A stretch of 64,000 bases of DNA from Isoetes taiwanensis (Eukaryota > Streptophyta > Lycopodiopsida > Isoetales > Isoetaceae). Both the position numbers and the translations under genes were made by a program. The stretch covers positions 12,050,101 to 12,114,100 of the forward strand of contig JAJEKV010000015.1 of assembly GCA_021234155.1 (NCBI GenBank). The letters run 5' to 3'. Below the pieces are notes generated by a model. The model ran no database searches, was not told the DNA's origin, and worked only from the letters and a program-made list of their open reading frames with translations. Below are positions 20,561 to 50,388 of the stretch, piece by piece (position 1 is the stretch's first letter; each line of letters starts with the position of its first letter).

Positions 20561-20574
20561 AACAAGAGAAAGCT

Positions 20575-21455
20575 TAGTGCCATCATCAACTTGGTTCGAA
20601 GCTCACAGAGCGAAGACTTTGCTTACAGCGAGTCAGAGCAGGAAGAAGAGGAAGAACGGAGCGTGAACAGTCCATCAGAGGAGGAAGAGGAAGAAAAAAG
20701 CATAGGAGAGTCAGAAGAGTAGCCAGCACCACCTCCAAAGAAGCAGAGGCTGACCATTGCTGCTAAGGACCCTAAAAAAAGAAAAACGGCAGCAATTGCC
20801 ATAGAAGATGCTCCTGAGGATGTTTCCAAGAAGAGGAAGGGAAAGGGCAAAGCACCTAGAGTTGCCATTAAGGAAAAGAAGGTTGATAAAACTTCAGAAA
20901 AGATGGAAGAAATTAACCTGCACAAGTTTGTGCAAGGTGTCATCTACCTGCCCGTCACATCAAGGAAGCTTCCTCCTAAAAATGAAGCTGGAGAACGACC
21001 ACTGCAGGTTCGGAAGATTTACGCAGATCATCTAAGGAACGTCAAGGATAGAATTCGGAGATCCGAACGCCCATGTTGCTCCTATTGTGGTTCTTGTTGA
21101 TAGAGAGAAGTGCACAAGTCCAGCAGAGTACGATAGAGAAAATGCGGACACATATACGCATTATGTTTTGGGTGGGAACCACAATTTCAAGGCAAGGAGG
21201 CAATTGTATAAAGAAAAAAAGAATCCTAGGTACTTGTCTATTCTCTGTGCAGTCTACTGTGGATTGACCGACGAAGAAGCCAAAATCGTTGCCAATACTC
21301 ACAATGCTGACAACGAGTACAAGTTAAAAATGAGCTTCGTCGACAAAATTCGATTTATGCACAGAGAATATGACATCTTCAAAGAAAAGTATGGGGAGGA
21401 TTTGAAAAAGCCACAATACTCACTTGAATTAAAAGAAGCTTGTGCCATTGAGTGT
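20575..21455 (+). pseudogene. ParB-like/methyltransferase gene copy 1, N-terminal half
   Basis: The frame at 20530-21060 encodes an acidic stretch (SEQEEEEERSVNSPSEEEEE), one in-frame TAG, then basic nuclear-localisation-like runs (PPPKKQRL, DPKKRKTA, SKKRKGKGKA) and PLQVRKIYADHLRNVKDRI. After a shift near 21065 the frame gives VAPIVVLVDREKC, THYVLGGNHNFKARRQLYKE and CGLTDEEAKIVANTHN. The PIVV plus LGGNH..A...L plus GLTDEEA..+A..HN pattern is that of ParB/Srx-type domains in bacterial and phage proteins. In bacteria such domains bind DNA or nucleotide, or sit before a methylase. LINE C interrupts the gene at about 21458; the rest continues at 22191. Confidence 0.6.
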
Positions 21456-21457
21456 TG

Positions 21458-22190
21458 CCTTTGTCACGGGCACTTGGGGTGAAACCTTCAGTCCCCTATC
21501 AGATTCTGCTGCAGGAAACTGGGTTCTTGCCACTTCAGCGGGTAGTCCTTGATAGACACATCGTCTACTTTCAGAAAGTGGTTAATATGGGTGATGCTCG
21601 GCTCCCGCACCTGGTTTACGCTGTGGCAATGGGCCCGCAGCGGCTCAGGGCCTGTTGGAGGGATAAGAGAGATCAGTGATTCGCCAGATGGAACGTGCAG
21701 GAGGAGCACAGATGTGTGCAGGTGGAGACAGAGGCCGACCGTGACAGCTTGCGGGAATACCTGGACGCTTGCTTCCTTGGCAAGCTCTGGGACCCCGGCG
21801 CTCTAGAGCAGGTCAAAACGGCCCATTACAAGGAGCACATCAACCCCGCATTGGCCGGGGGCCCGCAGCTCTACCTGCGTTCCCAGCTGCCCCTGAAAAA
21901 GCGCAGACTCATTGCCTCCATTCGCACAGGTGCCCACCATCTCCGCATCGAGACGGGTAGGTGGATTGGCGAGTCCCGCCAGGACAGGCTCTGTCAGTGC
22001 TGTCAAACGGGTGCCATTGAGGATGAGTCTCACAGTTTCTCAGCAGGCTGATTGCTGCCACGGTTTTTCCCTCGAAAACCCTTTGGGGCGGGTGTTTTTC
22101 CGGGTAGTAATCCGCTTGCTGCGCTTTTGTATTGGGTCTCATAGACCGATTGGTCTCCGTGGACGATAAAAATACCTTCCTTCCTTCCTT
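21458..22190 (+). mobile_element. 5'-truncated LINE, copy C, with (CCTT)n tail
   Basis: Begins in the conserved GVKPSVPYQILLQETGFLPL block, continues through HINPALAGGPQLYLRSQLPL and IRTGAHHLRIETGRWIGESR to the CCHC-like RLCQCCQTGAIEDESHSF. Then comes the same 3' UTR as copies A and B (GGTTTTTCCCTCGAAAACCC at about 22059, GGTCTCCGTGGACGATAAAA at about 22152-22171). The tail is CCTTCC repeats (22175-22190), unlike the TATTC tails of A and B. No target duplication is visible. It splits an exon of the ParB-like/methyltransferase gene. Confidence 0.85.
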
Positions 22191-23812
22191 AAATACGACG
22201 AGGCGAACAAACGGGCATCACTCATTGGTCACAAGTACTGGTTTCAGCTAGCGTTCAGGGATGGCCGGGTACGTTTTCAGCGTATTCCAGAATAAGATTT
22301 AGTGTGCAAAAACCTTCCTTGTTGACAACTAGCTGATGAGTTTCTTGATTTGTTTGCAGATCTGGGAGCTCCAAAATGAAATATTTAATATGTTTGAGCG
22401 TGGTGAACTAAAAAGTAAGGGCAAGGTCTCCGAGAAGAAGAAAGGCTCCGACGTGCCAAAAAAAGAAATGACAATCACTGTCTGGAGGGAGATGCAGGGG
22501 TTCACTGACACAGAATTACTAGAACGGCTCCTGCAGAAGGTGGTGGTGCAGAAGGTGGTGCCATCATTGTTCTCTTTTCTACTTCAGATTACTACCAGAG
22601 TCTTAAAATAAGAGCAAACGGGCATTCCTGAAAATGCTTTCTGCCCCTCGAAGGATCGAAAGTGTATTCCAGAATACACTTTCGCCCTTTATGAAGTGGA
22701 AAAGTGTATTCCAGAATACACTTTCGCTTCTGCTTAGCAGCGAAAACGTATTTTGGAATACACACTCTAATTTTGTGCAGTGTAGAACTGTATTCCGGAA
22801 TACACTTTCCCTCATATGCTGCAGCTAAAGTGTATTCTGGAATACGCTTCTGCAACAACATAAAAGTTGTCTAAGCCACTTGTATTCTAGAATAAATTTT
22901 AGTGTTAGGAAGTTACTTGACTTTACTCTTGCAGTTTTCAACTGCTAAAACGGTTGTGGTTTTCTTTCTAGCCAAAAAAATGTCATCACCTGCCAGACAT
23001 GTCTGATGGAGCAATTTAACGTGGAGACGTGGGAGAGGTGCAAGGAACTTTATCCCATTGCTACATCCGACGAACGTATTGTCCAGTACGCTCCAAATTT
23101 TGAAGGATGGGTACGCTGACTAAACACATGATTCTTGACTTGTCTAGGTCTCAATCTCTCCTTTGTTTGCAGAACAAGAAGAAAAATAAGGACCTGCCAG
23201 AAGGTTTCATGCACCTCGTGAGGCTGGCACGAGAAGAAAGAACATTGACAAATAGGAGGACTCTAGAAGTGGAGCCTTCTGAATATGAAAAGTTTAGTTG
23301 TACGACCAAAACAATTTGTTCTCTATCATCCACGGGGACTGCACTAAACTGGTTGGAACAATAAAGCCACAGGATTTTACACTGGCGGACCTTCCTTATG
23401 GCTTTAAACTAAAGGACAGCCGTTACGACGATCAGCCTTTTAAAAATTCAGAATTTAACGCCTTCGTCGATGGTATTAAGCAAATCATAACGGCCAAGTA
23501 CTGGCGTCTTGTTGTGTTTCATTCTAGCATGCAATCCGGCCTTGTGGAGTCCACGTTCAAGAATCATTTTGGATCCCCAGTGCAAGCAGGTTATGAGAAT
23601 ATGGTTTGGTGAGTACTTTATTCTGGAATACGTTTGGTTAGTTTCTTCTTTGTGTTTTCGTTTTCTATTCCAGAATATGATTGCCTTTGACTTGTTCTCT
23701 TTGTTAGTTTCTTGTTCTGTTTTCGTTGACACGACTCTAATTTCTACAGGTACAAGACAAATATAAACTACCATGGCGGCGGGCTGAGGTTGCTGAGTAA
23801 GGTTGAATACAA
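22191..23812 (+). pseudogene. ParB-like/methyltransferase gene copy 1, C-terminal half with DLPYG motif
   Basis: Exons with splice-like borders: 22191-22268; 22362-about 22600 (IWELQNEIFNMFERGELKSK...WREMQGFTDTELLERLL); about 22970-23107 (TCQTCLMEQFNVETWERCKE); 23173-about 23609; and 23750-about 23812. The fourth, after one frameshift near 23300, has SIIHGDCTKLV, then DFTLADLPYGF and WRLVVFHSSMQSG. This resembles the catalytic motif IV ((D/N/S)PP(Y/F)-like, here DLPYG) of N6-adenine/N4-cytosine DNA methyltransferases. The SAM-binding part would follow but the gene ends or is cut at about 23.81 kb. Introns are full of TATTCnnGAATA palindromes. Paralogue: 46.4-50.4 kb. Confidence 0.55.
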
Positions 23813-25390
23813 AGGTACGAAAGATTTAAAAAATGAACAAAAGGTTCGCCACTAAATGCGACCATGGACTTCAGAATGAAGTTGTGCTGGCTATTGCGTA
23901 CTTGTTGAATAGTGCAGGGACCAAGATCTCCCAAGGATATATATTACAACTAAATCTTTGAGGTCTAACAATCATGACCGTTTTCTATTTTCTCTCAAAC
24001 TATTACAAGTGTGCTATATAAAGCCTCAGAAGATAAAAAAAACAAAACAAAAAAACCTTTTAAAATCTGTTCAAACAGACCTTCCATGGACTTTTGCAAA
24101 GACCATTTTAGGCCAATTTCTAGCCTTAAGCCAAAGCAGGTGCAAATTTGACTTAAGCCTTGAGAATGGTTAACCTTCATTTAAGAAAAAGAATTAATGA
24201 GAATCTATAGCCAACATTTGATTCAAATACATAAGATCATGTAAAGACTAGTGAGAGATACCTTATCCTTATTCAAAAGATTATTGTCAACAAATCATTC
24301 TTAAAAGAGAGGAAATAAATCATATACAACAATACCTTGTATATGCGTTACACATAATAGTTTACAAAATACCATTTTTGTCAGTAGATTTTCAGCAAGA
24401 ACTGCTTATTGAAAGTTCCAGTAGAATTGTAGCCTTCCTTTCTTTAATCACGAAAATACAACAAGGAGCAAGGAACCCTGTTACCTGCAGTAGAACCAAA
24501 GGACAGTTAGCCTTAATCAGGGTAAGAGCCTAAGCTACTAACAGGTAAGCTACAGGTTACTTGAGCTTAACGCACTTCATCCCATTTGTTCTCAAAAACA
24601 CAATAGAGGTTGGAAAGCAGCTGCAAATGTTATGTACAACTCATAACATTACAATGATTAAGTTATGAGTGTCAAAGAACAATTAGTACTACAAGAAATT
24701 TATCGCGGCGGCCAAGGCCGCCGCGAACATTTCTCTTTACCAACTTGATGTTATTTCAAGGCTAAATATTTCTACTAAAAAACCTATTCATTAGGCAAGG
24801 TAAATGCCAGTCTAAAAGTTAATAGGCAACAACATTTCAACACAAAATCAATTTCTTTAAATGGGATGGTGAATTGGGCTTTTAAGAATTCTAGGAACTA
24901 TGACCCTCAAATTGAATATTGTCTACTTCGGGAACTTGATGGGAAACGTTAGTATTCCAATGGAACAAACAAATAACAAAGAAGATACAATCATGGTCTA
25001 CCTAGTATCATCCTTCTCAAGTCAAATCTTGGGCAGAAGATAGAAAACACAAACGACTAGGTCATAAATGCTTGGCAAACACTCTTCATAAATGATGTGA
25101 ATGCTAGGACTATCGTTCGTTCAACACCTTCTTTACAACTCTAATGTTCCTATTTCACAAATCATGGGGACAACATATTTAAAATCGTGTGTATTATATA
25201 TGGGTTTTAAATTATTAAGAATTTTAGATTGACTTATGAGATAAGATTTAATGTTTTTACAAAAAATTTGGTTGAAAGAACAAAATCGGAAAAAAAAAAC
25301 AATTGTTGGGAAAACCAAAAAAGGAAAAAAAAATGTTGAAGAAAAAGCTTCACGGCAGCGGCTGCTGCTGACCATGTTGGATTGGCATCG
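23813..25390. other. No gene seen
   Basis: AT-rich. At 24687-24730 a CACTA-like fragment (ACTACAAGAAATTTATCG) is followed by a GC palindrome CGCGGCGGCC-AA-GGCCGCCGCG; no matching right end was found. The rest has no recognisable feature. Confidence 0.4.
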
Positions 25391-25392
25391 CA

Positions 25393-25464
25393 TTTTCTAG
25401 CCAAATCTACAGAAGCAAGGGGAGCTATTTTCTAGCCAAATCTACAGAAGCAAGGGGAGCTATA
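25393..25464. repeat. 36-bp tandem duplication
   Basis: Two exact copies of a unit starting TTTTCTAGCCAAATCTACAG and ending GGGGAGCTAT lie head to tail. Confidence 0.85.
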
Positions 25465-25689
25465 CTCGATGCCTGCAAGAAATAGAGCTCGAGCACTTTG
25501 GGAGATTTTTTTTTTCTCTCTTTCATTTTTCTCTAGTGCCTTCTATTACAGGATTTGATTTGGTCAGCGTCCGCTAACTCTAAGTAGAATGGCCAGCTGT
25601 GAGACCCACCGTGCAGGGTTTTCGGCTCTGCCATGGCTGGCTATTTGATCAGCCTCAGCCCTTGCAAGGTCAACCTGACCTTGCCATGG

Positions 25690-26520
25690 CCATGCATTTG
25701 GACCGTGAGTATGAAACAATCCATAATCTAATGAGTACCTACACAGACAAAACAAATAAGATATTGTAAGGAAAAGTTTGATTATTGTTACTAAAACTTG
25801 GCTTTGTTCTTAGCAGGTATGTCAAACATTATCTGGGCAGGCACACCACATTCCCCCCCTGAATCAGAATTGTTGTAAAATGATCCAGAGCCAGGCCAGT
25901 CACGTTCATGATTTCCACTGTGCAGTATCATAAAGTTTTCACTTTTCTAGTCTAGTCTAGTAATAAAGATATGCCTTCATGAAATTCATATTTTATACAT
26001 GACACACCTTGCAATCATGTAAGGAACACGTGATGCTATTGTTTCAACCTGTTCAGTAAATTAATCCCACTGAGAAAGATATCCATTGGAATAAATGTGC
26101 AACACGATATCTATGTTTTCGATGTCTTCTATTAACCGATCAGTCGTGTTTAATGAACTAGGTTGATAATCGTTATATTCGTTTGAACCATCCCTTTCTC
26201 CCTGTAAGCATACAACACCATACGATTGTTACAACAAAACACAAGGAGTTACTCTAACTCGTTTCCTATCTGAAGTATCATTATATTTCACACAGAAAGA
26301 GTAGCAACACCTTCCCCATATCACCAAAAATAATCACGCGCTGAAGGGAATTTTCTCCTATTGAAGGTGCAGACTTAAAATGCCTTTCCTCTCCAGTTAC
26401 CAACGACCCGTTCTGTAGCTTGTGAGCTATAGTATAGTAGTATATCCAGGATCACGCCAACCAACTGTTTTGGCAGCTCCACCTAGAAGTATAACCAAGC
26501 ATTTATAAGAAACACGTTTA
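25690..26520 (-). pseudogene. Purple acid phosphatase gene fragment (plant PAP, decayed)
   Basis: Reading the minus strand, exon-like pieces follow in the family's order: AAKTVGWRDPGY (about 26470-26505); GSLVTGEERHFKSAPSIGEN then SLQRVIIFGDMGK (about 26325-26415); ERDGSNEYNDYQPSSLN, IENIDIVLHIYSNGYLSQWD and EQVETIASRVPYMIA (about 26000-26215); SGNHERDWPGSGSFYNNSDS with GGECGVPAQIMFDIP (about 25820-25930); and YSLDYGLFHTHG (about 25705-25746). These match plant purple acid phosphatases, secreted two-metal phosphatases. The segment between HI and SNGY, normally carrying a GDLPYA metal-ligand motif, is missing; there is an in-frame TAA (QWD stop FTE) and a shift near 26440. The C-terminal half is absent. 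Confidence 0.85.
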
Positions 26521-26895
26521 AGGAACAAAGCATTTATGCTGCTATCTGGATAAGGATCATGCTTTGACTGTTACTCTTGCAAAATAAGTATAATTTTTGA
26601 AAGAACACATCACCTCGCTGGGCCCAAAGTAAAAACTTGTTCTATTTCAATTATGAGATCCAATAAACCTGCAAAATGGCATGAACCACCAGTCAAATCT
26701 GCCCGTCAAACTAAAACATAATTAGAGATCCTAGAGACATAATTGAAAAGTCTAGGAAGCTTACATAGACTCCTCCTGGAATAGCAAAAACAGATGACGA
26801 ATTAAATGCCTACAAATAGATCTGCTGCTTTAACGTATCTTTCAACTGTTTCGAGCTCATTATGAAATCTGACTTTCCCTTCTTCAGTCAGAAAG

Positions 26896-27132
26896 CAAGG
26901 GGGGTTCACTTTTGGGTGCCATACAATGTGCCTGAGTGACTTGTAGGGGGGTTTTTTGGACCCATTTCCACACGTATACGGCGGAGTTAAGGGGGTTTTT
27001 GACCACTACTTGGAGTAAGTTTTGTATGGAAGGGGTCAAATTTGCCTTTCAAAAAACCGTATACGGGGGTGTTTTTGGTCACCCTCTGCACGCACATGGC
27101 ATACCCCCTTTTGTATAAGTGCATCCCCCGGG
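26896..27132. mobile_element. 237-bp MITE with 8-bp target duplication, copy 1
   Basis: Ends are CAAGGGGGGTTCACTTTTG and, reverse-complemented, CCCGGGGGATGCACTTAT. TCAGAAAG flanks it at 26888-26895 and 27133-27140. Contains GTATACG and GGGGGTTTTT stretches also found in the copy at 45654-45894, which is in the opposite orientation. The 8-base duplication fits hAT-type MITEs. It lies just upstream of the phosphatase fragment. Confidence 0.85.
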
Positions 27133-27454
27133 TCAGAAAGTGGATGCTTCATCACGATATAGAACTATGGCATGACTAGCAAAAACTACTGTAAGGAACA
27201 AAGTATTGCATCTGCATAAAAGTATATGCATTCACTTGTCAACCTTCTTATGCTCTGCAAAGAAACCATAGATACGTTTTTGGTTATTTTTGCTTGCTAA
27301 CTTCTGTTTGAGTTAAATGCCCTGGAAGCATGACATTATATAGATGACTTTGATGGGTACTTGATGACCAGAGAAGAGAAACATGCACTGAACAAACTAA
27401 AAAAAGAAAATTTTAGAATCGACACAAATAGGCAGCATATTGTATAGTAACATA

Positions 27455-27805
27455 AACCTGAAGCAAGATGTGGCTCATTTGATGATCCCACATGACGTTT
27501 TTGCTGAGACAGAAGTAGGGCTTGAAATAGAACTTACTAGCAACATGAAGCACGCTCTTGCCATTTGAAAAACATCTAGTAACATCTGCCAGAAAATCAA
27601 TCCCATATGGTGGACGACTTCCCTTAGCCAAACTAAGCATATAGTTATTATTTCCAACACCAGAGAATGCCAAATTGAAAAATGCAGGAAAGATGGGTCC
27701 ATTCTGCTCTTCTGAGGTTCCAATAAAAAAAAATCGCAGCAATAACACAGAAACCAGAACGGAAACTGCATTTTTGCTTCCAGGTTTGGCTATGGCGATC
27801 TCCAA
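27455..27805 (-). pseudogene. GDSL esterase/lipase first-exon fragment
   Basis: The frame starts MEIAIAKPGSKNAVSVLVSV with a hydrophobic, signal-peptide-like segment. It then has VGNNNYMLSLAKGSRPPYGI, DF and CFSNGKSVLHVASKF, the block I/II region of plant GDSL lipases, secreted serine hydrolases. The catalytic GDSL serine block is altered: where GDSLSD is expected the sequence reads NLAFSG. No later GDSL exons were recognised. Probably a dead fragment; it lies upstream of and in the same direction as the phosphatase fragment but is unrelated to it. Confidence 0.7.
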
Positions 27806-28990
27806 TGAATGCAGGCATTTCGAACCAGTGTAGGTCCGTTAAAGGCTTCCTAACCTAAATTTCTAAGCACAAAAGAGCAAAGTCGAAGAGGTTACCGAAA
27901 TGCGAAATGCCCGTTAGTGAAGTTGTGCCCGCAGGAGCTGGGTTCGGCGTCCGGCAATATACCGACACTTTTGCACAGTACAATCTGGCCGAATTTAGTT
28001 TCGCATTTCGCTTTATCGAAATTTTCTTGTGACTTGTCCCCTTTTTCTCTGCATAACTCACAACCCCCTTTTTTCCTGCATACTGCCATCGCTCGCCATG
28101 CCACAGTGAAGCAGAGGTTTCTCTTCTTACGCCGGCAGACAGAACATCTGAGCAACATATCTTGCAGCGGCAGGGCTAATCTGAGGTCAAGCATGCCCGC
28201 CATCGCTAATAGCCAGGCGTCGAAAGATTGTAAAAAAAAATATACGTGGCACTTAAATATAGAACAGGATTGCGGCGCAGAAAAAATCGAGTGAACGACG
28301 AATAAAAATGAAAAATTTGAGAATGATTTATATATGTTTAGATATATTGGGAAACACTTTACCTCTGCCCAAGTTTGGATGTAGCACTTCCCAAATCCCA
28401 AAAGATTACTCCACAATAGCAACCCAAATACGTCAAATTATAATTAATTCAGATTATTAGGTCTCAATTCACTACTACATAAGTTATGCTTTTCGTATGC
28501 ATGTCATAGATTAGTTCCATAAAGAGCAGGTGTTTGTGCAAAATGTGGAGCCTATATGCTGATGTATCAACTTTAAAGTGCAAATATCACTATCATGCAA
28601 CATGCAGAACAGAGATAACAAGATAACCTTGTATTTCATTTAATCCCTTGGGTCACTATGGCAGCAACACAGGAGTTAAATACAACAAAACCAAGATGCC
28701 ATATGCTTTGAACACTTATAACCATGGATGTGCATAACTAGCATGAAGAATTTTCATTATTAAACAGGAACTTATCAAGTATATGTTAATGAGCAGCTAA
28801 TCATATTAGAGCCTATTTTCAAATAAAGAAAATGCTCTTACGAACATTGAAGCTATTACTATTTAGAGCATCTGCTAGGCAATAATAAATCCTCCATAGA
28901 TTTTTATCTCTATTTACATAGACAGAAGCAAAAAAATCTAATTGATGCCATCTTATCTATTGCATAAGGCCACTAAAAGCATTAGATAGA
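27806..28990. other. No gene recognised
   Basis: A minus-strand open stretch at 27892-28422 has a cysteine-rich part (VCRKKGGCELCREKGD) but no family match, and the GTAACC after GHFAFR (27897) could be a donor site. A poly-A/T-rich flank follows. Confidence 0.3.
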
Positions 28991-28994
28991 AATC

Positions 28995-29380
28995 ATTCAG
29001 ACCTGAGAGGTGGCTTTTGGATTGTTTTTACTGCATCAGCCATGCTAATTTGCTTATTGAAGAAAATCCTTGCTAACATCACCACGAGTGTTTTGTTATC
29101 CAAAGCATCAACTAAATTTTCCATATGATTGCCTTCTGTTGTAGCCTACAAGGCATCCTCTTCACTTTTGTCCTTGCCAATGCCATCACAATTCTTAAAT
29201 GTAGAATAGACTAATCTGCTATAATCACTTGATATCTCATCTGCAATTCCATTCCTTGTAGCCAAATTTACATCTATTTGCTTTCTCCTTGTTCTAGCGA
29301 AACAATCATACTGAACAACATGTAAGGGCTGGTATCTAATAATCACACAGGCTGCTTGCCTACCATCCGACGACCCTAAT
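28995..29380 (-). pseudogene. Unrecognised protein-coding exon, one in-frame stop
   Basis: The minus strand is open from about 29380 as SSDGRQAACVIIRYQPLHVV, QYDCFARTRRKQIDVNLATR and NGIADEISSDYSRLVYSTFK. After one TAG (29146) it continues in the same frame as ATTEGNHMENLVDALDNKTL and MLARIFFNKQISMADAVKTI, ending QKPPLR at a possible donor (GTCTGA). The composition is that of a real globular protein. I do not recognise the family. Confidence 0.45.
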
Positions 29381-31170: not shown

Positions 31171-31175
31171 GATCT

Positions 31176-31460: not shown

Positions 31461-31506
31461 GTACAAAAGAATTAGATCTGATCGGACTTTATTTCAGTAT
31501 CCGGGA

Positions 31507-36440: not shown

Positions 36441-36548
36441 GATTATAACATTTGAATAGTGGAGTGCAAGAGCAGCTCCTCCAAGAGTTGAGGAAGGTGC
36501 GGTACGTGTATTGCTTTTGGGGTCAAAAAGAGATCGTTCAAATGCCCA

Positions 36549-39037: not shown

Positions 39038-39096
<59 letters not shown>

Positions 39097-40097: not shown

Positions 40098-40102
40098 GTA
40101 AC

Positions 40103-40416
40103 TGTTGGGGTGGTCACCACTCACCACACTCATCACCACTCACCACACTCATCATATACCGTATATAGAGTGATATACGCGCATGCACGCGTGCAGGATT
40201 TTTGCACGTATGCATTGTGGAGCCATGATGAGCAGAATATTATCTGAGCAGGGAGAGAAGAACAGAGAGACGGTGTATTGAGAGAGAGAGGATTTTGCTT
40301 GATTGAGCTATGGAGATGATGATTCTTTGTGTTGTGCATTGCCTTGATCTGATAGATTGAACTTGGATTGTTGGGTTTTTCATCCTTCTTGCACGGTTAG
40401 AGTCCAGGCTCTAACA
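40103..40416. mobile_element. Solo LTR of an LTR retrotransposon
   Basis: Begins TGTTGGGGTGGTCACC and ends GGTTAGAGTCCAGGCTCTAACA-like sequence, so TG...CA with TGTTGG/CTAACA termini typical of Ty1/copia. It is flanked by a 5-base duplication, GTAAC (40098-40102 and 40417-40421). A TATA-like TATATAGAGTGATATAC lies at about 40161-40177. A short CACCACTCACCACACTCAT duplication is inside. No internal retroelement region, so it is probably a recombination product. Confidence 0.8.
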
Positions 40417-40421
40417 GTAAC

Positions 40422-41880
40422 TTAATAACTATGTTTGTTGTATCTAATTTGAAGATCTTTTTATTTTATTATGCATTAATCTCGAACGTGCATCATATCC
40501 ATTTTCATCTTGTTTTTCTAAGCTCATCTCACTTAATAGCTTAGGGCACAGATTTCCTTTGCTTCAAAGGAGTGTTGTGTATTTAATACAGTTCATCAAC
40601 TACTTGTTCTTTTTTTGGTTTATGAAGTTAAGCCCAGTTAACTTCACGATGAGATACGAACTTTAAGTGCTATGGAACCTAGGAGTTATTTTCTAAGCCA
40701 GGTAGGTTCTTGCATTTGAACCTGGAAGTACAACATCAGAGTAAACACGATTTCAACATGTACCCTTTCTATGGTGGATAAATTATGCAGCTAAAATGTG
40801 TTTAACTTGCATTTCTCTGGTCGCTTGCTATTTAGGTTGGCCGGCAGGGCCTTATGATTCCAAAAGCTCCAGCTTCAGAATAAGTTAAGGCAGAGAAGGA
40901 TGGCATATATGGATGGCTTCAGATTTCATGCCTAAGTATGCTGAATGGTTTCTATTTGTAGCCTCTGTAATCGACTGAAGCAGCTGCACTTGCAGACCAG
41001 TTTCCAAGTAAGCTTCTTTCATCACTCTATTAGCTTCCCATATATACAGAATGCATGTAGCAATATCCTGTGATCATGCAAGGGTGTGACAAATTTAATG
41101 GCATGTATAGACATTCTTGTGCTCGGAAATACTACGCTACCTTCTCCTGTCTCAAACACAAGCAGTAGTTCTTTGTTGTTAAGCCTCATAAAATGTCCTC
41201 CTATAGTTACTAGTAAGATAAAGGCAATACCCAATGCAATTAGCTTAATTACCAGATGAGCACAATTGAAGCAAGCTGACATCAGCTTGGAAACATGCAA
41301 GGATAAAGTAAGAACCTGGTTTGGTGAAGAAAAGCAAGACCTCAATTACTGATCAACAAGGAATGCAACACAAAATTGAGAGACTGCATACCCAGAGCCA
41401 AATGCCAAGCTTGCCCGATGATGAACCGTAATACCCTATCCAGCAGCCACTTAGACATTGAGAACATCGTAGGATGACCAAAGCTATTCTGAAATTCATC
41501 ATCGAAGTTGCCATTGCTTCGAAGTCATCACGCAACTCAGTTATTTCTACAGCACTTCTTCGAAGTCATCAAACCCCATCTCTAATGCTTTCGTTTATAA
41601 TAGCTTTGATACTGGCACCTGAAGCATTAACTTCAAATTTTGAAAATTTTATAGCTCTGAATTTCCCATGAATTGGAGAAATAAGTATATTGTCTCTGGG
41701 CTGTATGGCTCTGCGCGAAGAGAGCAATATTTTGGGTAACCACGCAACCTTATAGTTGGAAGGACCAATGGGACAAGGTCTCATTCGTAACTATTCTTTC
41801 TTTATGTGCCAGTAAGTTTTTGCAGAAAGAATAATGCTACACACCTATTTTCTTTTACGCGCTTTAAGTTAGATGTTGTT
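40422..41880. other. No gene recognised
   Basis: Small frames on both strands without domains. Lies between the solo LTR and the PPR pseudogene, and could contain further decayed PPR sequence that I cannot read. Confidence 0.35.
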
Positions 41881-41899
41881 ACTGCAGCTGCATTGGTTA

Positions 41900-42540
41900 C
41901 TTTATCTGGTTGATTCTAGGATTTAAGTCTTGCCCGTCAAGAACTTAATAGGATGTATAAAATAAGCATTGTGTCATGGACTGCATGTATACAGAACAAA
42001 GAAGAATAGAGAGAGAGATAGCAGTCATGGAACTATTTGAGATCATTCAATCCCAAGGTCTCGTATCAAGTGATGCCACATATGCCAATATTCTTAATGC
42101 ATGTAAATTTGCTGTGAAGGCAAACCATTCCATAATGTCCATTTTAATGAAGCAGGTTATTTTTTAGATGTACACTCTACTTTCGTAGCCCAACTGGTCT
42201 TCTATAAAATGCATGAGAGAGGAATATTTGTATGTATCATTCCCTTTGTATGTGTGCCCATGGATATTGTACTGATGCTCTACATGTATTTCTGATATGG
42301 AGATGGAAGGTTTAACACCAGACAAAATTACTCTTGTCACCCGCATTGATGCTTGTGTTATTTTGCAGTCCCAGGTAAGTAGATTGATAATTGTCGGACT
42401 CAGATAGATTTTTTATACGGATGTGTACATGAATACAACACTTGTTAACATGTATGCAAATTGTGGGAATCTAATGGATGCAGAAGCCATATTTGAGAAG
42501 AAGACAACAAGAAACTTGATTTCGTGGAATGCCAAATTGT
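41900..42540 (+). pseudogene. PPR (PLS-class) protein gene remnant
   Basis: Repeat-like pieces in order: ARQELNRMYKISIVSWTACI; AVMELFEIIQSQGLVSSDAT then YANILNACK; MEMEGLTPDKITLVTRIDAC; and MNTTLVNMYANCGNLMDAEA with IFEKKTTRNLISWNA. The patterns VSW.A.I, LF..M...G...D..TY..+L.AC and LV.MYA.CG...DA..+F are those of plant pentatricopeptide-repeat proteins, which bind organelle RNA and direct editing or processing. Pieces lie in different frames with stops, so the gene is dead. Confidence 0.8.
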
Positions 42541-43990
42541 AGCAATTGGGAGGTTTCATGTCAGATAACATCACTCCTATTAATATTCTTTCTGGAACCA
42601 CCATGGACTTTTAAAGAATGGGATTCATTCTTATCCATCGAGCAGCATTTCTTGATTGCTTCATCAATGGGACATTATAAATGCATGATTCATCTCCTTG
42701 GATGGCAGGGTATCTGATGAGCCAGAGCACCTTATTAGCGACATGCCATTTCTGGCCTATACAAGATCATGGGCAATTTTGTTTGGTTCTTGTAAAATAT
42801 TTTGGCACAGCGTGAAAATCAGACAATGACTCTGTCGAGAAGTCCTTGATATTCATATTTCTATTGAATAGGGCCCTGTTTTGGCCATATTTCCGAATGC
42901 TTTTAATGTGTACTTAGTTTATCAGCATAATGCAAAAGAATTTGTTCCGAGGGCTGTAAAGTTTTGCCTGAACTATGCTGAAAAAAAAATCCTGGCATCC
43001 ATACAGCTATTTTTATTTACTCCTATTATGCTGAAGGAATTAGTGATGTGATGCATAACCAGAGAACATGAAGATTCACTATGTGCTCTGGATAGTGCAC
43101 ATTATTTCCTTAAGATTTCGGATATATGCAGTTCCTTATTAATGCAGCAAACTGTGTCTTCGTTCAGTTCTGCATTTTTAGCTTGTCCTACAAGCTCCAA
43201 GAATCATGCATATAAATTTATAAGAGAGTCGAAAATATGGAGATATATATTGATTTGAATCGAAGCAATGTGATCAAACCCTACAACACTAGGCTAGAAT
43301 AACAGCTAATGCACAAAACACAATTAAGTAGATTTTATCTTTCTGTTGAATTATCACAGCGACACATATGACACCTACTTTAAAAAAAAAGGGAAAAAAA
43401 GAAAAGAAAAGAAGAGAAGGGTACCTCGCGATTGCCGGGTCTCTCCACGGCTGAAGGATGAGCATGTTCCAAGCCAAGTAACATTATTTGACAATCATGT
43501 TTTCCCACAATCGCAATTCACCTTAGACACATATAAAATGACGAGAATATTCTTAAATGTCCTAACCCTCCACCATCAACAAGGATTTGGGATTTGGGCA
43601 ATCCAAAAGGTCTGTATGTTTCAAACTAAATATTATAGAATAAAAATTTACTTTTAGAATTAGCTAAGGTTTTATAAACATTCTTCAATATTGGCACGTG
43701 CACGAGCTCTAGGGGATGGTTCTAATTATCATTTGCAAGTTATTGACTAAAGAAAAGAAACAGTAGAATGAAATACATAAACAATTCTATTAATGAAATG
43801 ATTGTCTATTGAGGCACCATCCTTGGAATACAAACCATAATCCTTGTCTAAAAACCACCTATATGCAAGTAACAATTTGTACATAGTGTTTTGCTGTCTT
43901 TCTCTATATCACAAGTTCATATTATTATGATCATTGCCAACAAGTGCATCTAAAAAAAGTTAGCATGAGCATTAAGAAGTAAACCAATTT
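42541..43990. other. No gene recognised
   Basis: AT-rich, with an A-rich run at about 43381-43420. Nothing supported. Confidence 0.4.
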
Positions 43991-44006
43991 GGCAGTCCAT
44001 GGTCCT

Positions 44007-45620
44007 TCAAGCAACAAATACAAACGCAATAATGATCAATTTAAGTCTACCACTCAACCCTACATATGACGTTTTATTTCTAAATTTTCCATTTCGCGTC
44101 AAATACCAAAACTTTTTTGAACTTGAAGGATTGCCATGCAAATTGTTATAGCCAGTCAAAACAGTGTTATACTCCCGAATAAATTGCTTTTCTAATATGT
44201 TCGCCTCGTGTCGATTGGTGGCATGCCCTAATATCTCAAACTGGAACATATTCAAAATGCAACCATACTTCTCAACATCTTTAGCCATTTTCTTATTTGG
44301 CTTCTTCATATGTTGTTTCATACGTTTCCAAGGATTCGACGATTGCCCTATATTTCATCTCCCTCCCCACACATGTAATGCAATAGATATAAATAGGTTT
44401 CAATATCATGCACTCATTGTCTGCGAAAGCAAAATTGAGCATGTATAAATAATAAAGAAGCTAGTGCTACACAAAACGAAAAATTACATCCTATCATTAT
44501 CTATGAAATGCGTTCACATAATCACAAACAACATATACCTTTACGAACAACGTGAATGTAAAAAGCAACCAAACTGCTAAAAGAACCATCATAAATGGAA
44601 AGAAGATCGACACAATTTATTGATGGTTACCGAAGTCAACATTATTGTTCAGAAAACTATAGTTCAATTACATCAAGTGTTACCAACATCTGTTGAGCTG
44701 GGGAAAAAATCCTTGTTCCCGAAAAGCTCGACCGCAATTACAGGATTAATTTGATACGTAACTTTCTCTATTGTCATTGGATTTTTTGGCTTATGGTCAT
44801 GCCCATACATTTGCATTAATCTTGACATCAACTTCTGCGCTTGACTGTTTGACATCTCCATCAATTCAGAAATAGTCACATTGGTAACCATTAACGCCTT
44901 TGGTAACACCACCCAATAACTCGGCAGCCTCATCCTTCCCCAAAGCATCGTAATCGCACTCAACATTTTGTGACCTTAAAAAGAACTTCAAGAAAACTAC
45001 AAATGTCAAATGACAAAGGGGTCAAAGCATAGAGGTGGGGGACACTTTTTATGTCCTGGACACTTGGTGCTTAGTGGGTGCTTTCTGGGGACCTTTTCTT
45101 TGTATTTTGAAAAAAAAAAATTCTTTTATTTTTTTAATATTTTTCCTTGAAACGCATTAATATCACGCCTTTGAATACAAATTTTCAGCTTTAATGGACT
45201 TATAGAAAAAAAGATAAAAATAAATAAAATTTTCCGCACTGGGTGCTTAGTGGGTGCTTGGCTGGCGTAAAAGTGCCCCCCAACTCCATGCTTTGACCCA
45301 AAGAAAGTCGCATTAATACAACCAAAATCAAAAAAGGGAAGAAAAAAGAAACCATTGTTTTGCATACCATCTGCAGGGCTATCGTTGTTCTCCTTTGTAA
45401 GACTTGCTCTTTTCTTCTTTGCTAGATCAGTAAAGTCATCCATCTCCTTCTTGGTTTCCCAACCTTTTATGTATGCCTCCGTTTCCATCCCACACAAATT
45501 CAAATGCCGCATATGAGCACTGTCTAAAGTAAACCTTTTTGAGCTCGATGAAATTGGCGCAGGAGATGATATCTCTTCCAGTAAAAGCTCCCAAGCCTAA
45601 ACATGTTTGACAGAAAGAAA
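44007..45620 (-). pseudogene. GIY-YIG nuclease gene, multi-exon, frameshifted
   Basis: The last exon (44400-44007) reads IYCITCVG, then KY, a frame change at about 44350, GQSSNPWKRMKQHMKK, KMAKDVEKYG and FEILGHATNRHEANILEKQF then IREYNTVLTGYNNLHGN. This is the GIY-YIG layout: IYC...KYIGQS, R...H and a catalytic glutamate region before YNT...GYN. Upstream exon-like frames (44966-44673; 45620-about 45371, AWELLLEEISSPAPISSSSK...KKKRASLTKENNDSPADG ending at a GGTATGC donor) may be its N-terminus. GIY-YIG nucleases cut DNA and are common in homing elements, phages, giant viruses and Penelope-like elements. A MITE sits in the intron. Confidence 0.6.
45019..45299. mobile_element. 281-bp MITE with long inverted ends
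   Basis: Left end GGGTCAAAGCATAGAGGTGG, right end reverse-complemented GGGTCAAAGCATGGAGTTGG. Both ends also carry GTGCTTAGTGGGTGCTT as a subterminal direct repeat. AAAG lies on each side (45015-45018 and 45300-45303), a possible 4-base duplication. It occupies an intron-like gap of the GIY-YIG gene. Confidence 0.75.
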
Positions 45621-45653
45621 AAGTACAAATAGAAATAACATCCACATACGAGA

Positions 45654-45894
45654 CCCGGGGGGTGCAATTATATATAAGGGGTGGGGTATGGCATCTGGCG
45701 TTGAGGGTAGCAAAAAACCCCCCTTGTGTACGCAATTTTAAAAGGCAATTTGACCCCTTTGTGTATAGATATTGCTCCAAATCAGTGCCTAAAAACACCC
45801 CTAACCCCTACGTATACGTACGCAAATAGTCCAAAAAACACTCCTCCGTTGAACTCTCATGGGTTATACGCTGATCAAAGGTGAATCCCCCGGG
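45654..45894. mobile_element. 241-bp MITE with 8-bp target duplication, copy 2
   Basis: Same family as 26896-27132, inverted. Ends are CCCGGGGGGTGCAATTAT and, reverse-complemented, CCCGGGGGATTCACCTTTG. ATACGAGA flanks it at 45646-45653 and 45895-45902. Confidence 0.85.
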
Positions 45895-45902
45895 ATACGA
45901 GA

Positions 45903-46433
45903 CCCCAGAAAAAATATGCAGACTAAACAAAAACCTGTTTAGTAGCCTTCCAGACTGTCTAGCCTTCTTCCCAACCCTACAGTTCTGCTAGTTAATCATT
46001 TTTTAAGGTTTGTACAGGTGGCTTTTGCACGATAGACCATAATGCTTAGACAAAATTGTAGGGTATTGAATAAGCATAGTTTGGGTTCATTTTATCCGTT
46101 GACTTGTAGTAGAAGAGTTTAAATGTCAACTGGGCAAGGGTTATCTTAAACCAACGTCCATGTTAATTCCAATTGAACCATCATTCATTTAAATTGGATT
46201 TATGTCTGTTCCAAAAGCACGCCACTTTTGCATACCCTTTTTTCAATATAGTGTTGTAGTGTGTAACATGCTGTTTTGCAAGGTTGCAAATTTTTACATT
46301 ATAGTAGTGGGTGGTTTAACATTTTCTTGTTTTAATGAGAAGAATGTGGTGTTTGATTAGCATTTGTAGATAACAACACATCAATATACACAGAACACTT
46401 TTTACATTGTATTCACTTGATATGAAGATTACA
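45903..46433. other. No gene recognised
   Basis: AT-rich spacer between the MITE and the second methyltransferase-like gene. Confidence 0.4.
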
Positions 46434-47836
46434 TCATGGAGGGACTAGTCCTTTCTTTGTCAAATAACTCTCAAGATAGGGATCCATCTCCTTAGTCCGA
46501 TCTAGTTCTGGATGCGTTTGGACAATATCTGATAATGTTTTACTAGCAGCCAAGCCACTCATGATGGACATGAATAGTACTAGAAACTCATCTGTTGAGT
46601 AATCTAGTAGAGTATAACTTGGTGGATTTAGAGCCTGACCTTGATTATTAAAAGCACTTAAGAGCATGATCATCTACTATTATGATGTCCTCTTTCTTTT
46701 GAATGCCAAGCTGATCCATCATAGTACCAAGATGTTTAACGAAGACCAGTATGCCATCCGGATTTCTTGGATGTGGAAACTTTATACACTTAGTTTGGTC
46801 CCAAATCGCCACAAAGTCTCAATTCATTCCTGGTAACACCCTAAGAACTTCATCAATATTTCTGCATTCCATTGAGAACTAGATGGCAACATGAAACAAT
46901 CTGAATGCCTCGTTCATCATATCTTCTAAGTGTGGGCGAGGAAAGATCCATTTAGTATTCGATTCGAGACGGACTTGTTCGAAGTCATCCTTATTAATAA
47001 GCTTCTTAGGAAACGTTTCACACCGGACACCCTTCAGATCGAAGAAAATGATTTTGTCACAAGCAGGTGGAGCCCTGAACCATGGAAAACAAAGAGTTAG
47101 CCATACAAAAATTGTCTGCAATACACGCCAAACGCGTTTTGTCCGTTAGAAGTATTCTACATATCGCGCCTGGCGTGAATTACCTTTCATCATCAGAGCC
47201 TTTGTGGTCATCCCCAACAGTCATAGCGTCTACTTCACTCCCCGGATGCTTACTGCCACGGTTTAGTTCGGACATGTTCTCTTCTATGAAAGCTACCTCA
47301 AGGTTTTGATTCCTAACCTCAGTGGTTGAATCTGAGCTTGCATGATCATCCCGGCTTGTATCAGGAACTACCGTAGTCGTACCCCCAAGTGTAACATTAC
47401 CGGTTGGAATATTACCAAGCATGGACTCCATATTTTGCTCCATGATCTCACGTTCCGTGCTAGCATTGCGGCCTTCTCCTCGGGTTGCATTGCTTTTTAA
47501 ACATTCTGGAGTTGCCCTTGGAGGCTTTTGTGAAATAGTAGTATGCTTCTTCCCTTTGTAAGGTACCAAAGCCAATGGGTTTTTATCTTTGACAGGATCC
47601 CAATCAGCCGTGGCTAGTACCTTTTCGAAAAACACTTCAAAGAAATCCCTGGACTTGTCATCGTTGACGAAACTTAGACATCTTCTTGATGTCTTCAAGG
47701 CTTCTCTACCAATGTACCCTCCAACATGAAATTCACAACAAGTGGTATCAAGTGGTGCAAAAGACTCAACAAGATAGCTTGCCAGATTGATTGCAAACCC
47801 ATGTTTATTTAAAGGCCCCTTTTGTTTTGTCAGCAA
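46434..47836 (-). pseudogene. ParB-like/methyltransferase gene copy 2, C-terminal half
   Basis: Frame 47836-47180 extends upstream in phase (EFDVPDLYGKDITLELLTKQ). It has GPLNKHGFAINLASYLVESF and APLDTTCCEFHVGGYIGREA followed by LKTSRRCLSFVNDDKSRDFF. That resembles the SAM-binding motif of DNA methyltransferases (...D.F.G.G....A....R....E.D). A serine/threonine-rich acidic tail follows. Frames 47121-46879 and 46673-46434 continue with FDLKGVRCETFPKKLI and DFVAIWDQTKCIKFPHPRNP-like text in several frames. The motif-IV-like block is not seen in this copy. Multiple shifts and stops show decay. Confidence 0.5.
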
Positions 47837-47879
47837 TTCCAGAGTGATGTCTTTCCCATAAAGGTCAGGAACATCAAAT

Positions 47880-50388
47880 TCCTAGCATTTCATTCGCTTC
47901 ATCCTCATCATCTGCTTTGTAAAAGACATTTTTCAAGCTGGGTTCATCTAAAAGAAAACACTGCCATGCACCTTTATCTGATGCTCCTTTGCTCTTAGCT
48001 ACCTCATAGTCATCATCTGGCACAAGGGATATCATTATGAAGATTATACATGCGCTTTTTAAACTGCATCCTCAAATCAGTATCCTTTGTCTCAAAGAGA
48101 AGAGAACCTTCCTTAACGACCTTTAGGCATTCCAAGTCGTATGAAGCCACCAAAGCATGCATATGAGGCTCTCCCGGGGGGAATTGATGACAATAATAAA
48201 GAGCTTCTCAATTGTTAAGCCTATGTAGCTAGTAAAAAAACTGTTGTACTCTTTTTGAATCATCCCCTTCTCTCCTTTTGCAGTCCTGCTAGCCAATACA
48301 AACAGAGAAATATTACAAGGGCCTATTGTTGTATCGGGTAGGAGACCTTTATAGTCAGTAGAGACCAGGTATTGGAGTGCAGGTAAGTCACCACCAGCAT
48401 CTTTCAGGATGGCAACCTTTCTTCTCAGCTCAACCATCACCTTATCTGATAGTTTTGTAGTATGATGTTGGTTCTTTGATTTCTTGTTTTGCATAACGTC
48501 CTTGGACCAGAAGACGTATTTCTTGATGTCATCGGCAGACACGCCATACTTGTCTAGCAGACCGAGTTCAGACAATGTTACATTACCAGATAGCTTCTGA
48601 AGTTCTTGATCAATTGCTACCTTCATAACTCGCATGTTCTTTATATGAGTGCAATAATCAACGAAGGACATTTTGTTCTTAACTGAAGAACCCTTCTTGT
48701 ACAGAACTTCTTTATTTATGCATTGATCTAACAGCCAAATGACTTCATCATCCTGAAGGCCCTGTACTTTCCTCATCTCGGTGGTCTTCAAATCAAATAT
48801 TGTCTCTTGAGGAGGCACTCTTCCCATTGCATCTGGCAGCTGTTTCTGAGTATAAGCATCCCAGAACTCGTTTCACTTCGCCCAGACTTCGTCCTTAGCG
48901 AAGATGGTCCCTCTGGAAAATGCTCCAGACGTCTCCTCTGCTTCCTCCCACTATTTTTCCTGTCTTTTTGGGCCTTGGTTTCTTTATCTTGGATGATAGC
49001 CAAGGTCTTTTCCAATGCCTTATACTCCTTAGACTTCGTGCCTCCTTGCTTTGTTTGCAGCGATCTTCCATATTCTATCCATTGCTGGGGGGCATGACGG
49101 AGTTGTTCCATGTAAGGGCTGCACGAATAAGAAAAATATATCAACCAAAACACGCAGGGCATACAAAAATAAACAGCTTTTTAAATCAAGCCAACAGGAT
49201 AACCAGGAAAGGACAAAGCCAGGCGTGCTCATAACGTTTCTGATGTGTACTCATGCTGCCAATTCGCGCCAGGCCTAGTCTATTGTCTGGCGCGAATTGC
49301 CTGTTGAATACACACCAGAAGCGTTTTGGTCAGGCAGTATATTGCCAGTTCGCGCATGACCTAGTCTATTGTCAGGCAGTATATTGTCAATTAAGTATAT
49401 TGTCAGGCAGTATATTGCCAGATGCGAGCTGACAGCATGAATAGACGCCTGACCTAGTCTACTACTGTTATTCCTACTTGATACATCTAAATACCACCTA
49501 ATATACTAACCTTTTATAAAGGAAGACTTTGTCCATTTCGTTCAATGTTGCATTAATCTCTGCGAGGTTCTCTGCAGGGGTATGGAGGCTTAGAAACCGA
49601 CACCTTCTGTAGTTGTAATGAAGCAGATACATGGTTTGTCCTGTTTGCTTAGCCTATCCATGGTTGGATAGGGAACGTTGTGCTTCAATAGAATGCTGTC
49701 CGTCAATAATAAGCAAGCATATATTTGGGTTCTCTACTGTAAGCTCCTCTAGCGTTGTCCACTGGAGTGGAGCATCTTTTTTCCTATCCTAAGGAAGCAC
49801 GTCTGCTGGCATAGGGACTTGGCCTAGATTCCTCAGCATCGCCCTCAAGATTTCTCTTGCATGCTCAGAGTCATACCTCCTGCTAACAAATGTTGACTTA
49901 TGTGATCTCACCAGACGGTCAACATGGATGGGATGTGTAAAAGATTGGCCAAGTGGGTAGTTGTCTGCGTACTTGACTAACCTACTCATTGCCTCCAGCT
50001 GCGATTTTTTTTCGGAGTCATTTTCTGCCAGCATGCCATCAACTGTTGCAGCTGGGATGTCCTTTCCTAAGTCCAGCAATCTTCGTACATCCCTGATATC
50101 ATTTTGATGCTTCAACTCTTCCAGGTAGTAACTTAGAGAAGATCCCCGCAAAGCTCTCCTCACTGCAGACACTGGAGTGAGAGCAGTATTTTGAGGCCAT
50201 CCATACTTGAAACATGATTCAACACTCACATCCTTCTTCACCAGACCAATCTTTGAAAGCTGTTGCCTTGGCATGTGTAAATCTGACAAGATCTTTCTTG
50301 TGGTTCCAATTATTTCGTTTCGTATTTGAGGGCGTATCTCACGCATGGTTTTGCCTAGATTTTGGGGGTGTATTGTATGCAGAATCAT
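47880..50388 (-). pseudogene. ParB-like/methyltransferase gene copy 2, N-terminal half
   Basis: The first exon (50388-49512) reads MILHTIHPQNLGKTMREIRP, then FTHPIHVDRLVRSHKSTFVS, and after a stop NICLLIIDGQHSIEAQRSLS and HTPAENLAEINATLNEMDKV. The IDGQH..EA...L core plus the following (A)E..A.I...LN matches the GGNH..A..L and GLTDEEA block of copy 1. An intron (about 49511-49110) with repeat motifs follows, then a charged exon (QQWIEYGRSLQTKQGGTKSK, KAQKDRKNSGRKQRRRLEHF), then 48827-48123 with TTEMRKVQGLQDDEVIWLLD, parallel to WREMQGFTDTELLERLL of copy 1. Decayed. Confidence 0.55.
49250..49450. repeat. Intronic repeat array in copy 2: TTCGCGCCAGGC and CCTAGTCTATTGTC motifs
   Basis: CCAATTCGCGCCAGGC (about 49259) and GTCTGGCGCGAATTGCC (about 49289) form an inverted pair. 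CCTAGTCTATTGTC recurs at about 49276 and 49360, a related CCTAGTCTACT at about 49454, and CAGGCAGTATATTG recurs three times. The related GCCTGGCGTGAATTACC sits in another intron near 47169. Confidence 0.7.

What the first reader, a model, noticed from the sequence alone, without database searches (positions are those of the whole stretch)
20575..50388. A ParB-like plus DNA-methyltransferase-like gene family in a plant nuclear genome
Two copies (20.5-23.8 kb plus; 46.4-50.4 kb minus) share a ParB/Srx-like core (LGGNH..A...L or IDGQH..EA...L, then a GLTDEEA..+A..HN-type block) and methyltransferase-like signatures (GDC...FTLADLPYGF in copy 1; DTTCCEFHVGGYIGREALKT in copy 2). ParB-domain plus N6/N4-methylase fusions are known in bacterial and phage proteins. 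Here the genes have introns, nuclear-localisation-like basic runs and decay like transposons, so they may be a mobile element encoding its own DNA methylase.
Basis: partly seen in the sequence, partly recalled or inferred. Interest (0 to 1): 0.85.

Follow-up and report, generated by a model that had tools for sequence, protein, structure and literature searches.

The report
Plant jumping gene encoding DNA methylase
Both gene fragments belong to large DNA transposon families in a plant genome; one family carries a ParB-like protein fused to a bacterial-type DNA methylase, and a palindrome repeated in its introns, which suggests, without yet proving, that the transposon recognises and chemically marks its own DNA.

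Summary
Copy 1 is a decayed copy of an 8.3 kb transposon: imperfect ~25-bp terminal inverted repeats, 4-bp target duplications (7 of 7 elements with both ends found), a DUF7869 transposase-like gene and, on the other strand, a five-exon ParB-like/methyltransferase gene. The methyltransferase is certain (PF01555, 69 bits, cut-off 26.7; 150 of 150 scored genome hits above it); the ParB-like domain rests on weaker profile hits. Purifying selection is strong. Copy 2 belongs to a related 11.7-12 kb family of the same layout without a detectable methylase; it ends in an NIF-type phosphatase. ParB-methylase proteins in algal transposons, and the idea that they mark their own element, are in print (Ectocarpus Sola1-1_Ec32). 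New here: a plant (by LEAFY and dirigent genes, a land plant), the phosphatase-bearing sister family, and a candidate target. The palindrome core TATTCYRGAATA occurs 124 times in non-coding and 0 times in exonic DNA of 14 copies, mostly 41-43 bp apart; the 18-base form occurs 4,367 times genome-wide (backwards control 0). I propose, unproven, that the protein binds these sites and methylates the element against host silencing, as VANC proteins do by another route.

The parts
4586..5151 (-). Family 1 element: DUF7869 (transposase-like) domain, in two frames
   Evidence: Pfam PF25273 E 7.7e-17 and 9.4e-26; element homology over 4161-5283
13767..14831 (-). Family 1 element: further part of the left (transposase-gene) side, separated by other sequence
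   Evidence: 81-83% DNA identity to copies A, B and C; no Pfam hit
18952..20176 (.). Family 1 element: region between the two divergent genes, with palindrome cores at 19680, 19944 and 20111
20177..22268 (+). ParB-like/methylase gene, exon 1 (frameshifted; interrupted by an insertion at about 21462-22186); ParB-like core in frame at 21036-21461
   Evidence: exon mapping; core found at 150 scored genomic places
22283..22294 (.). Palindrome core in intron 1
22360..22555 (+). ParB-like/methylase gene, exon 2 (3' end lost)
22662..22895 (.). Intron 2 array of the palindrome (cores at 22665, 22707, 22791, 22833, 22883)
22972..23110 (+). ParB-like/methylase gene, exon 3
23173..23608 (+). ParB-like/methylase gene, exon 4, with methylase motif IV (DLPYGF); frameshifted
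   Evidence: PF01555 on the relative L019
23619..23677 (.). Palindrome cores in intron 4 (23619, 23666)
23751..23810 (+). ParB-like/methylase gene, start of exon 5; the copy breaks off here, before motif I
46176..50306 (-). Family 2 element, 3' part, with 3' terminal repeat at 46176-46200
   Evidence: TIR exact match
49657..50433 (-). Family 2 gene: ParB/DGQHR-like exon region (LLIIDGQHSIEAQ)
   Evidence: weak DGQHR-domain hit on the relative L027
47180..48872 (-). Family 2 gene: large middle exon (frameshifted); in relatives its first part is related to the family 1 helical region
46642..46977 (-). Family 2 gene: NIF-like (HAD) phosphatase domain
   Evidence: PF03031 E 1.7e-4, 21.7 bits against 21.8; relatives 2.5e-11

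Best explanation
Shown by sequence: copy 1 is a decayed member of a large, Sola-like cut-and-paste transposon family with two divergent genes, a DUF7869 transposase-like gene and a ParB-like/beta-class DNA methyltransferase gene; copy 2 belongs to a sister family whose ParB-like protein ends in an NIF-like phosphatase. Inferred mechanism: the ParB-like part of the family 1 protein binds the palindrome GTGTATTCYRGAATACAC. These sites lie in the region between the genes and in introns 1, 2 and 4; in arrays they are spaced about four helical turns. From there the fused methylase places N6-methyladenine or N4-methylcytosine on the element, which keeps it from host silencing or keeps its genes on; self is recognised by the repeated motif. 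Family 2 would use its own motif (GAATACACGCCAGG...). I put the anatomy at about 0.95, binding of the palindromes by the ParB-like protein at about 0.55, and the full self-marking, anti-silencing mechanism at about 0.4.
For: Methylase: PF01555 E 6.4e-19, 69.2 bits against a cut-off of 26.7; CcrM 1.2e-11; GDC, D-x-PY, QKP and VLD...GSGTT shared with two phage methylases, motif IV before motif I; DLPYGF in 14 of 14 aligned copies. ParB-like: TIGR03764 9.4e-5, PHROG_1033 0.005, 12 of 12 plasmid records matched are annotated ParB, though at E 0.3-8. Transposon: TIRs and 4-bp duplications in 9 of 9 elements with both ends found, 7 of family 1 and 2 of family 2. Linkage in three separately ranked best-150 lists: 47 of 150 ParB-like hits have a listed methylase hit within 12 kb, 47 of 47 downstream on the same strand; 22 of 150 have DUF7869 within 12 kb, 22 of 22 upstream on the opposite strand. 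Selection on the ParB-like region: median dN/dS 0.062, maximum 0.157, over the 23 of 55 pairs with measurable dS above 0.1. Palindrome core: 124 non-coding, 0 exonic in 14 copies; intron 1 14 of 14, intron 2 14 of 14, intron 4 11 of 14, upstream 10 of 14; 51 of 73 spacings under 140 bp are 41-43 bp; the 18-base form 4,367 sites genome-wide, backwards control 0; 0 cores in three family 2 stretches. Analogue: VANC21 binds motif arrays in introns and intergenic parts of its own transposon (PMC5735166, passages).
Against: PF02195 does not match; the top PHROG hit is a family of unknown function (0.00085); the ParB-like region found nothing in the PDB (profile), in phages or in viral contigs. The motif is DLPY, not DPPY. 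Many copies are frameshifted. The selection figures come from copies chosen for long open frames. Intron 3 and the 3' end carry no palindrome. The arrays could serve another factor. I did not test how many of the 4,367 sites lie in family 1 elements. No methylase was detected in family 2, so self-methylation cannot be the shared function of the ParB-like proteins unless it was lost there.
Confidence: 0.45

Rival explanations
1. The palindrome arrays are binding sites of the DUF7869 transposase, as repeated motifs are in some other transposons; the ParB-like/methylase protein acts elsewhere.
For: Transposases can bind repeated motifs (recalled). DUF7869 is in both families and both have a family-specific repeated motif.
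Against: In copies A, B and C the palindrome cores begin 3.7-4.0 kb from the left end and stop 1.1-1.9 kb before the right end; none lies near the TIRs or in the left 3.6 kb. Most are in introns of the ParB-like gene.
Confidence: 0.2
2. The protein is a repressor or copy-number brake: it binds the promoter region and introns and lowers expression of both genes.
For: Sites lie between the divergent genes; 19 sites lie 8-15 nt after a splice donor.
Against: A methylase domain is not needed for simple repression; no expression data.
Confidence: 0.2
3. The palindromes act in RNA, as hairpins near splice donors that control splicing of the ParB-like/methylase gene.
For: Near-fixed distance from donors; palindromes can fold.
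Against: Regularly spaced arrays, and sites upstream of exon 1 in 10 of 14 copies, are not needed for that. Folding was not computed.
Confidence: 0.1
4. The methylase domain acts on RNA or is inactive, and only the DNA-binding part matters.
For: DLPY rather than DPPY; no methylase model matches the sister family; dN/dS for the exon 4 segment of copies A and C is 0.37 at low dS.
Against: Best matches are DNA methylases such as CcrM; DLPYGF kept in 14 of 14 copies; leaving out frameshifted L021, exon 4 dN is 0.07-0.12 in all 11 pairs whose dS is saturated.
Confidence: 0.12
5. Passenger: a captured bacterial gene without function, or bacterial contamination.
For: Bacterial-type domains in a plant contig.
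Against: Five exons with mostly kept splice sites, purifying selection, fixed linkage to DUF7869, copies on many contigs.
Confidence: 0.03

Closest known systems
ParB-like/DNA methylase gene of Sola1-1_Ec32, brown alga Ectocarpus (PMC12477816, passages and one part of the reference list); [quoted passage not shown] 2011; Petroll et al. 2025; neither held)
   Same: ParB-like plus N6/N4 methylase domains in one protein of a DNA transposon, on the strand opposite the transposase; binding and marking of the own element is already proposed there
   Different: Plant host, 8.3 kb instead of 21.5 kb, palindrome arrays as candidate target, and a sister family with an NIF phosphatase and no detectable methylase. 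I could not compare the sequences
VANC proteins of Arabidopsis VANDAL transposons (PMC5735166, passages)
   Same: Works-like candidate: element-encoded protein; family-specific repeated motif in introns and intergenic parts of its own element
   Different: Binding and loss of methylation were shown there, nothing of the kind here; no methylase domain in VANC that I know of (recalled); no homology claimed
Sola DNA transposons (PMC10741241, passages; PMC3627910, passages)
   Same: 4-bp target duplications, TIRs, size range; known from the moss Physcomitrella and not common in flowering plants
   Different: No Sola transposase model was on hand, so superfamily membership is inferred
Beta-class DNA methylases (CcrM, RsrI, MboIIA)
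   Same: Domain, motif order and motifs
   Different: DLPY in place of DPPY; joined to a ParB-like domain; eukaryotic introns

Membership tests
N6_N4_Mtase DNA methylases (PF01555) | Profile match above the curated cut-off | tested here: met
   69.2 bits against 26.7; 150 of 150 scored genome hits over the cut-off, 1,444 candidates
N6_N4_Mtase DNA methylases (PF01555) | Motif IV before motif I (beta-class order; rule recalled) | tested here: met
   DLPYGF in exon 4, FSGSGTT in exon 5
N6_N4_Mtase DNA methylases (PF01555) | Methylates DNA | not testable with these tools
   no assay
ParB/Srx (PF02195) | Match to PF02195 | tested here: not met
   no hit at E up to 10 for the isolated ParB-like region; none
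ParB-like proteins in the wider sense | Significant match to a ParB family model | tested here: met
   TIGR03764 E 9.4e-5 (L004) and 5.8e-4 (L019), 22 and 20 bits, far below that model's cut-off of 143.75; PHROG_1033 0.005 and 0.018
ParB-like proteins in the wider sense | ParB fold | not testable with these tools
   structure prediction switched off
Transposon ParB-like/methylase accessory proteins | Both domains in one gene | tested here: met
   exons on one strand in phase with splice sites; 47 of 150 ParB-like hits with a listed methylase hit, 47 of 47 downstream on the same strand. No transcript seen
Transposon ParB-like/methylase accessory proteins | Carried by a DNA transposon, opposite the transposase | tested here: met
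   that DUF7869 is the transposase is inferred
Sola superfamily | 4-bp target duplications and TIRs | tested here: met
   9 of 9 elements with both ends found; L023 had no 5' TIR in the 3 kb fetched and was not counted
Sola superfamily | Sola DDD transposase | not testable with these tools
   no Sola profile; DUF7869 has candidate acidic residues by eye only (VIDGMD, QLDN, GHTHDQID)
VANC-like anti-silencing (works like) | Family-specific motif arrays in non-coding DNA of its own element | tested here: met
VANC-like anti-silencing (works like) | Protein binds the motif and relieves silencing | not testable with these tools
   needs experiments
NIF-like phosphatases (PF03031), family 2 | Profile match above the cut-off | tested here: met
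   44 bits against 21.8 on letters joined from L027 and L028; the window copy 21.7, just under

The most novel reading that the evidence does not exclude
In a plant, two related transposon families carry self-recognition systems of prokaryotic design: a ParB-like protein loads on family-specific repeated motifs inside the element, as ParB does on parS clusters, and delivers a catalytic domain along the element. In one family this is a DNA methylase writing a non-canonical mark that shields the element from 5-methylcytosine silencing; in the other the methylase has been lost or degraded and a CTD-type phosphatase added, acting on transcription or chromatin instead.
Probability: 0.25. Interest if true: 0.88.

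Novelty: new variant of a known kind. Interest (0 to 1): 0.66.

Why it matters
Whether plants make functional N6-methyladenine or N4-methylcytosine in DNA is disputed. A transposon family of at least 150 scored copies (probably many more) that encodes a conserved bacterial-type methylase, with a defined candidate target sequence, makes the question directly testable in one species: look for the mark on GTATTC/GAATAC sites in young copies. It also gives a second, apparently unrelated candidate for sequence-specific anti-silencing besides VANC.

Tried and rejected
Rejected: a methylase in copy 2. Pfam finds none, and for four relatives the alignment of the middle region with the family 1 methylase half is marginal (z 3.0, 1.1, 0.3, 1.6; shuffles reaching the score 4, 43, 99 and 26 of 300), whereas the preceding helical half is related (z 5.9, 4.1, 6.5, 6.7; 0, 1, 0, 0 of 300). 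The profile comparison gave E 0.02, probability 2.3. ParB-like blocks of the two families: E 0.0069, probability 5.5, weak. Rejected: one family for both copies; LTR or Helitron origin (TIRs and 4-bp duplications instead); bacterial contamination. Led nowhere: PDB search with the ParB-like profile, phage and viral-contig searches, species naming, paper search for DUF7869. Literature searches for ParB with methyltransferase and transposon listed, as far as titles and the opened passages show, only the Ectocarpus paper as relevant; I did not open the others in full, and the library lacks most subscription journals, so absence in print is not shown.

Limits and rows dropped: of 11 right halves fetched, L015 and L025 were left out of the 14-row alignment because they lack the 3' half. 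Copies were picked for long open frames. dN/dS leaves out 32 of 55 pairs (dS at or below 0.1, or saturated). Exon 5 selection was not measured (only L023 fitted the search pattern). Candidate counts are rough. The species is unknown. That it is a land plant rests on 4 LEAFY-domain matches and 150 of 150 scored dirigent hits; the 14 control genomes ring in neither, and the distribution of these families is recalled.
Full report
OBSERVATION. The quoted blocks are real. Copy 2's middle exon did the same, 3,844 candidates. The genome has 4 LEAFY-domain matches and 150 of 150 scored dirigent hits over the cut-off; by what I recall of these families it is a land plant. The species is unknown.

THE FAMILY 1 ELEMENT. 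Comparison of fetched copies gave common ends. Two complete copies measure 8,284 bp (B) and 8,760 bp (A, which holds a 0.55-kb insertion). The ends are imperfect inverted repeats, AACAAAGTTGCGTATTAAACGGGAG and, reversed, AACATGATTGCAAATTAAACGGGAG. Seven copies with both ends found have 4-bp direct duplications: ATGA, TGTT, CCTA, TCAA, AATA, CTCG, GTTA. Six further copies were tested; in the sixth, L023, no 5' repeat was found in the 3 kb fetched and it is not counted. Copy C's 5' end is truncated, and C lies between 3.5-kb direct repeats. The left side holds a DUF7869 gene on the minus strand (E 1e-46; window copy 7.7e-17 and 9.4e-26). DUF7869 is a very large family here: 150 of 150 scored hits over the cut-off, 9,908 candidates. 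In the window the element is split by other sequence and truncated.

THE GENE. Fourteen aligned right halves (13 loci and the window) show five stretches with third-codon-position excess. At the four introns 51 of 56 donors are GT; at introns 1-3, 37 of 42 acceptors are AG; the intron 4 acceptor lies one base further upstream and was read by eye. The spliced protein of L019 (its methylase part) matches PF01555 at 6.4e-19 and CcrM at 1.2e-11. The 20 phage records listed are 22-26% identical. DLPYGF is in 14 of 14 copies and a clean FSGSGTT in 8 of 14. In the whole genome 150 of 150 scored PF01555 hits pass the cut-off, of 1,444 candidates. The ParB-like region gives DUF6551 at 0.012, TIGR03764 at 9.4e-5, PHROG_1033 'ParB-like partition protein' at 0.005 and, better, a PHROG of unknown function at 0.00085. 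All 12 plasmid records matched are annotated ParB, but at E 0.3-8. PF02195 is not hit. dN/dS in this region is 0.062 at the median of 23 pairs. In a 222-base segment of exon 4, 15 of 21 pairs have saturated dS; leaving out the frameshifted L021 these have dN 0.07-0.12. Of the rest, A-C has dN/dS 0.37 at dS 0.10, A-L023 0.14, C-L023 0.13, L018-L020 0.10, and two pairs with L021 0.49 and 0.91.

LINKAGE. Three separately ranked best-150 lists were compared. Of 150 ParB-like hits, 47 have a listed methylase hit within 12 kb, all downstream on the same strand (45 at 1.7-2.6 kb). Of 150, 22 have a listed DUF7869 hit within 12 kb, all upstream on the opposite strand. Of 150 methylase hits, 24 have DUF7869 within 15 kb, 22 in that arrangement and 2 not. 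As only the best hits of large families were listed, these are lower bounds.

THE PALINDROME. TATTCYRGAATA occurs 11, 14 and 12 times in copies A, B and C; a first-order Markov model gives a mean of 0.0 in 100 trials each. In the window all 11 occurrences lie at 19680-23666, within family 1; three family 2 stretches have none. In the 14 right halves 124 sites are non-coding (19,218 bases) and 0 exonic (37,343 bases): intron 1, 14 of 14 copies (14 sites); intron 2, 14 of 14 (81); intron 4, 11 of 14 (18); upstream, 10 of 14 (11); none in intron 3 or the 3' end. Of 73 spacings under 140 bp, 51 are 41-43 bp. The centre is CA 51, TG 40, CG 25, TA 8, as expected if a methylated CpG decays (inference). 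For 19 sites a donor-like pattern lies 8-15 nt upstream. The 18-base form GTGTATTCYRGAATACAC occurs at 4,367 sites in the genome, backwards control 0; how many lie in family 1 elements was not tested.

FAMILY 2. Two complete copies are 11,660 and 12,040 bp, with TIR AACCATCATTCATTTAAATTGGATT and duplications ACTG and TTTT, DUF7869 on the minus strand (4.7e-29), a DGQH block (DGQHR-domain hit at 0.047) and a C-terminal NIF-like phosphatase (2.5e-11 on joined letters). Its protein is related to family 1's through the helical region (0-1 of 300 shuffles, four relatives); relation in the methylase half is marginal. It has its own motif, AATACACGCC within GAATACACGCCAGGCGCGAAT, in the region between the genes, the intron after the ParB-like exon, and downstream (positions compared by eye with the frames; one site in G27 falls in an open frame that may begin in intron). 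The 21-base form occurs 103 times in the genome, backwards control 0.

WHAT IS KNOWN. The Ectocarpus transposon paper (PMC12477816; passages and one part of the reference list) describes a ParB-like plus N4/N6 methylase protein opposite the transposase of Sola1-1_Ec32, mentions green and red algal cases, and already suggests binding and marking of the own element. Sola elements have 4-bp duplications and are known in moss (PMC10741241, passages). VANC21 of Arabidopsis binds a nine-base motif arrayed in introns and intergenic parts of its own element (PMC5735166, passages). A 2025 survey finds the AMT1 type of 6mA pathway lost in plants (PMC12695648, passages). So the kind is known; the plant host, the palindrome arrays and the phosphatase-bearing sister family are what I did not find in print.

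VERDICT. Transposon with its own methylase gene: shown by sequence. ParB-like: likely. Self-binding and self-marking against silencing: the best guess, about 0.4, untested.

Noticed in passing
44007-44351, minus: A GIY-YIG nuclease domain (PF01541, E 6.6e-7) beyond the family 2 element; possibly part of a Penelope-like retroelement (guess).
   Followed up: no
21461-22032 and 8604-9935: Both stretches resemble one region upstream of the family 1 copy on C1028 (67% and 71%), so a further repeat has inserted into exon 1 of copy 1 and elsewhere in the window; the frames scanned gave no Pfam hit.
   Followed up: partly
L012+L007 (C1100), joined positions 1-3528 and 12056-15575: A family 1 copy lies between 3.5-kb direct repeats 95.8% identical: local duplication or another element.
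   Followed up: no
52001-56000: Strongly pyrimidine-rich strand (GC skew -0.55, AT skew -0.49 at 52-54 kb) with TTTTCCC-type repeats.
   Followed up: no
61330-61795: Tandem array of a 57-bp unit with a 171-bp higher-order period.
   Followed up: no
family 1 copies, exons 4-5 (alignment): By eye, small insertions and deletions between copies seem to gather at a few sites such as CTGG/CCAGG; not counted. Mutational hot spots or sequencing error at modified bases are possible.
   Followed up: no
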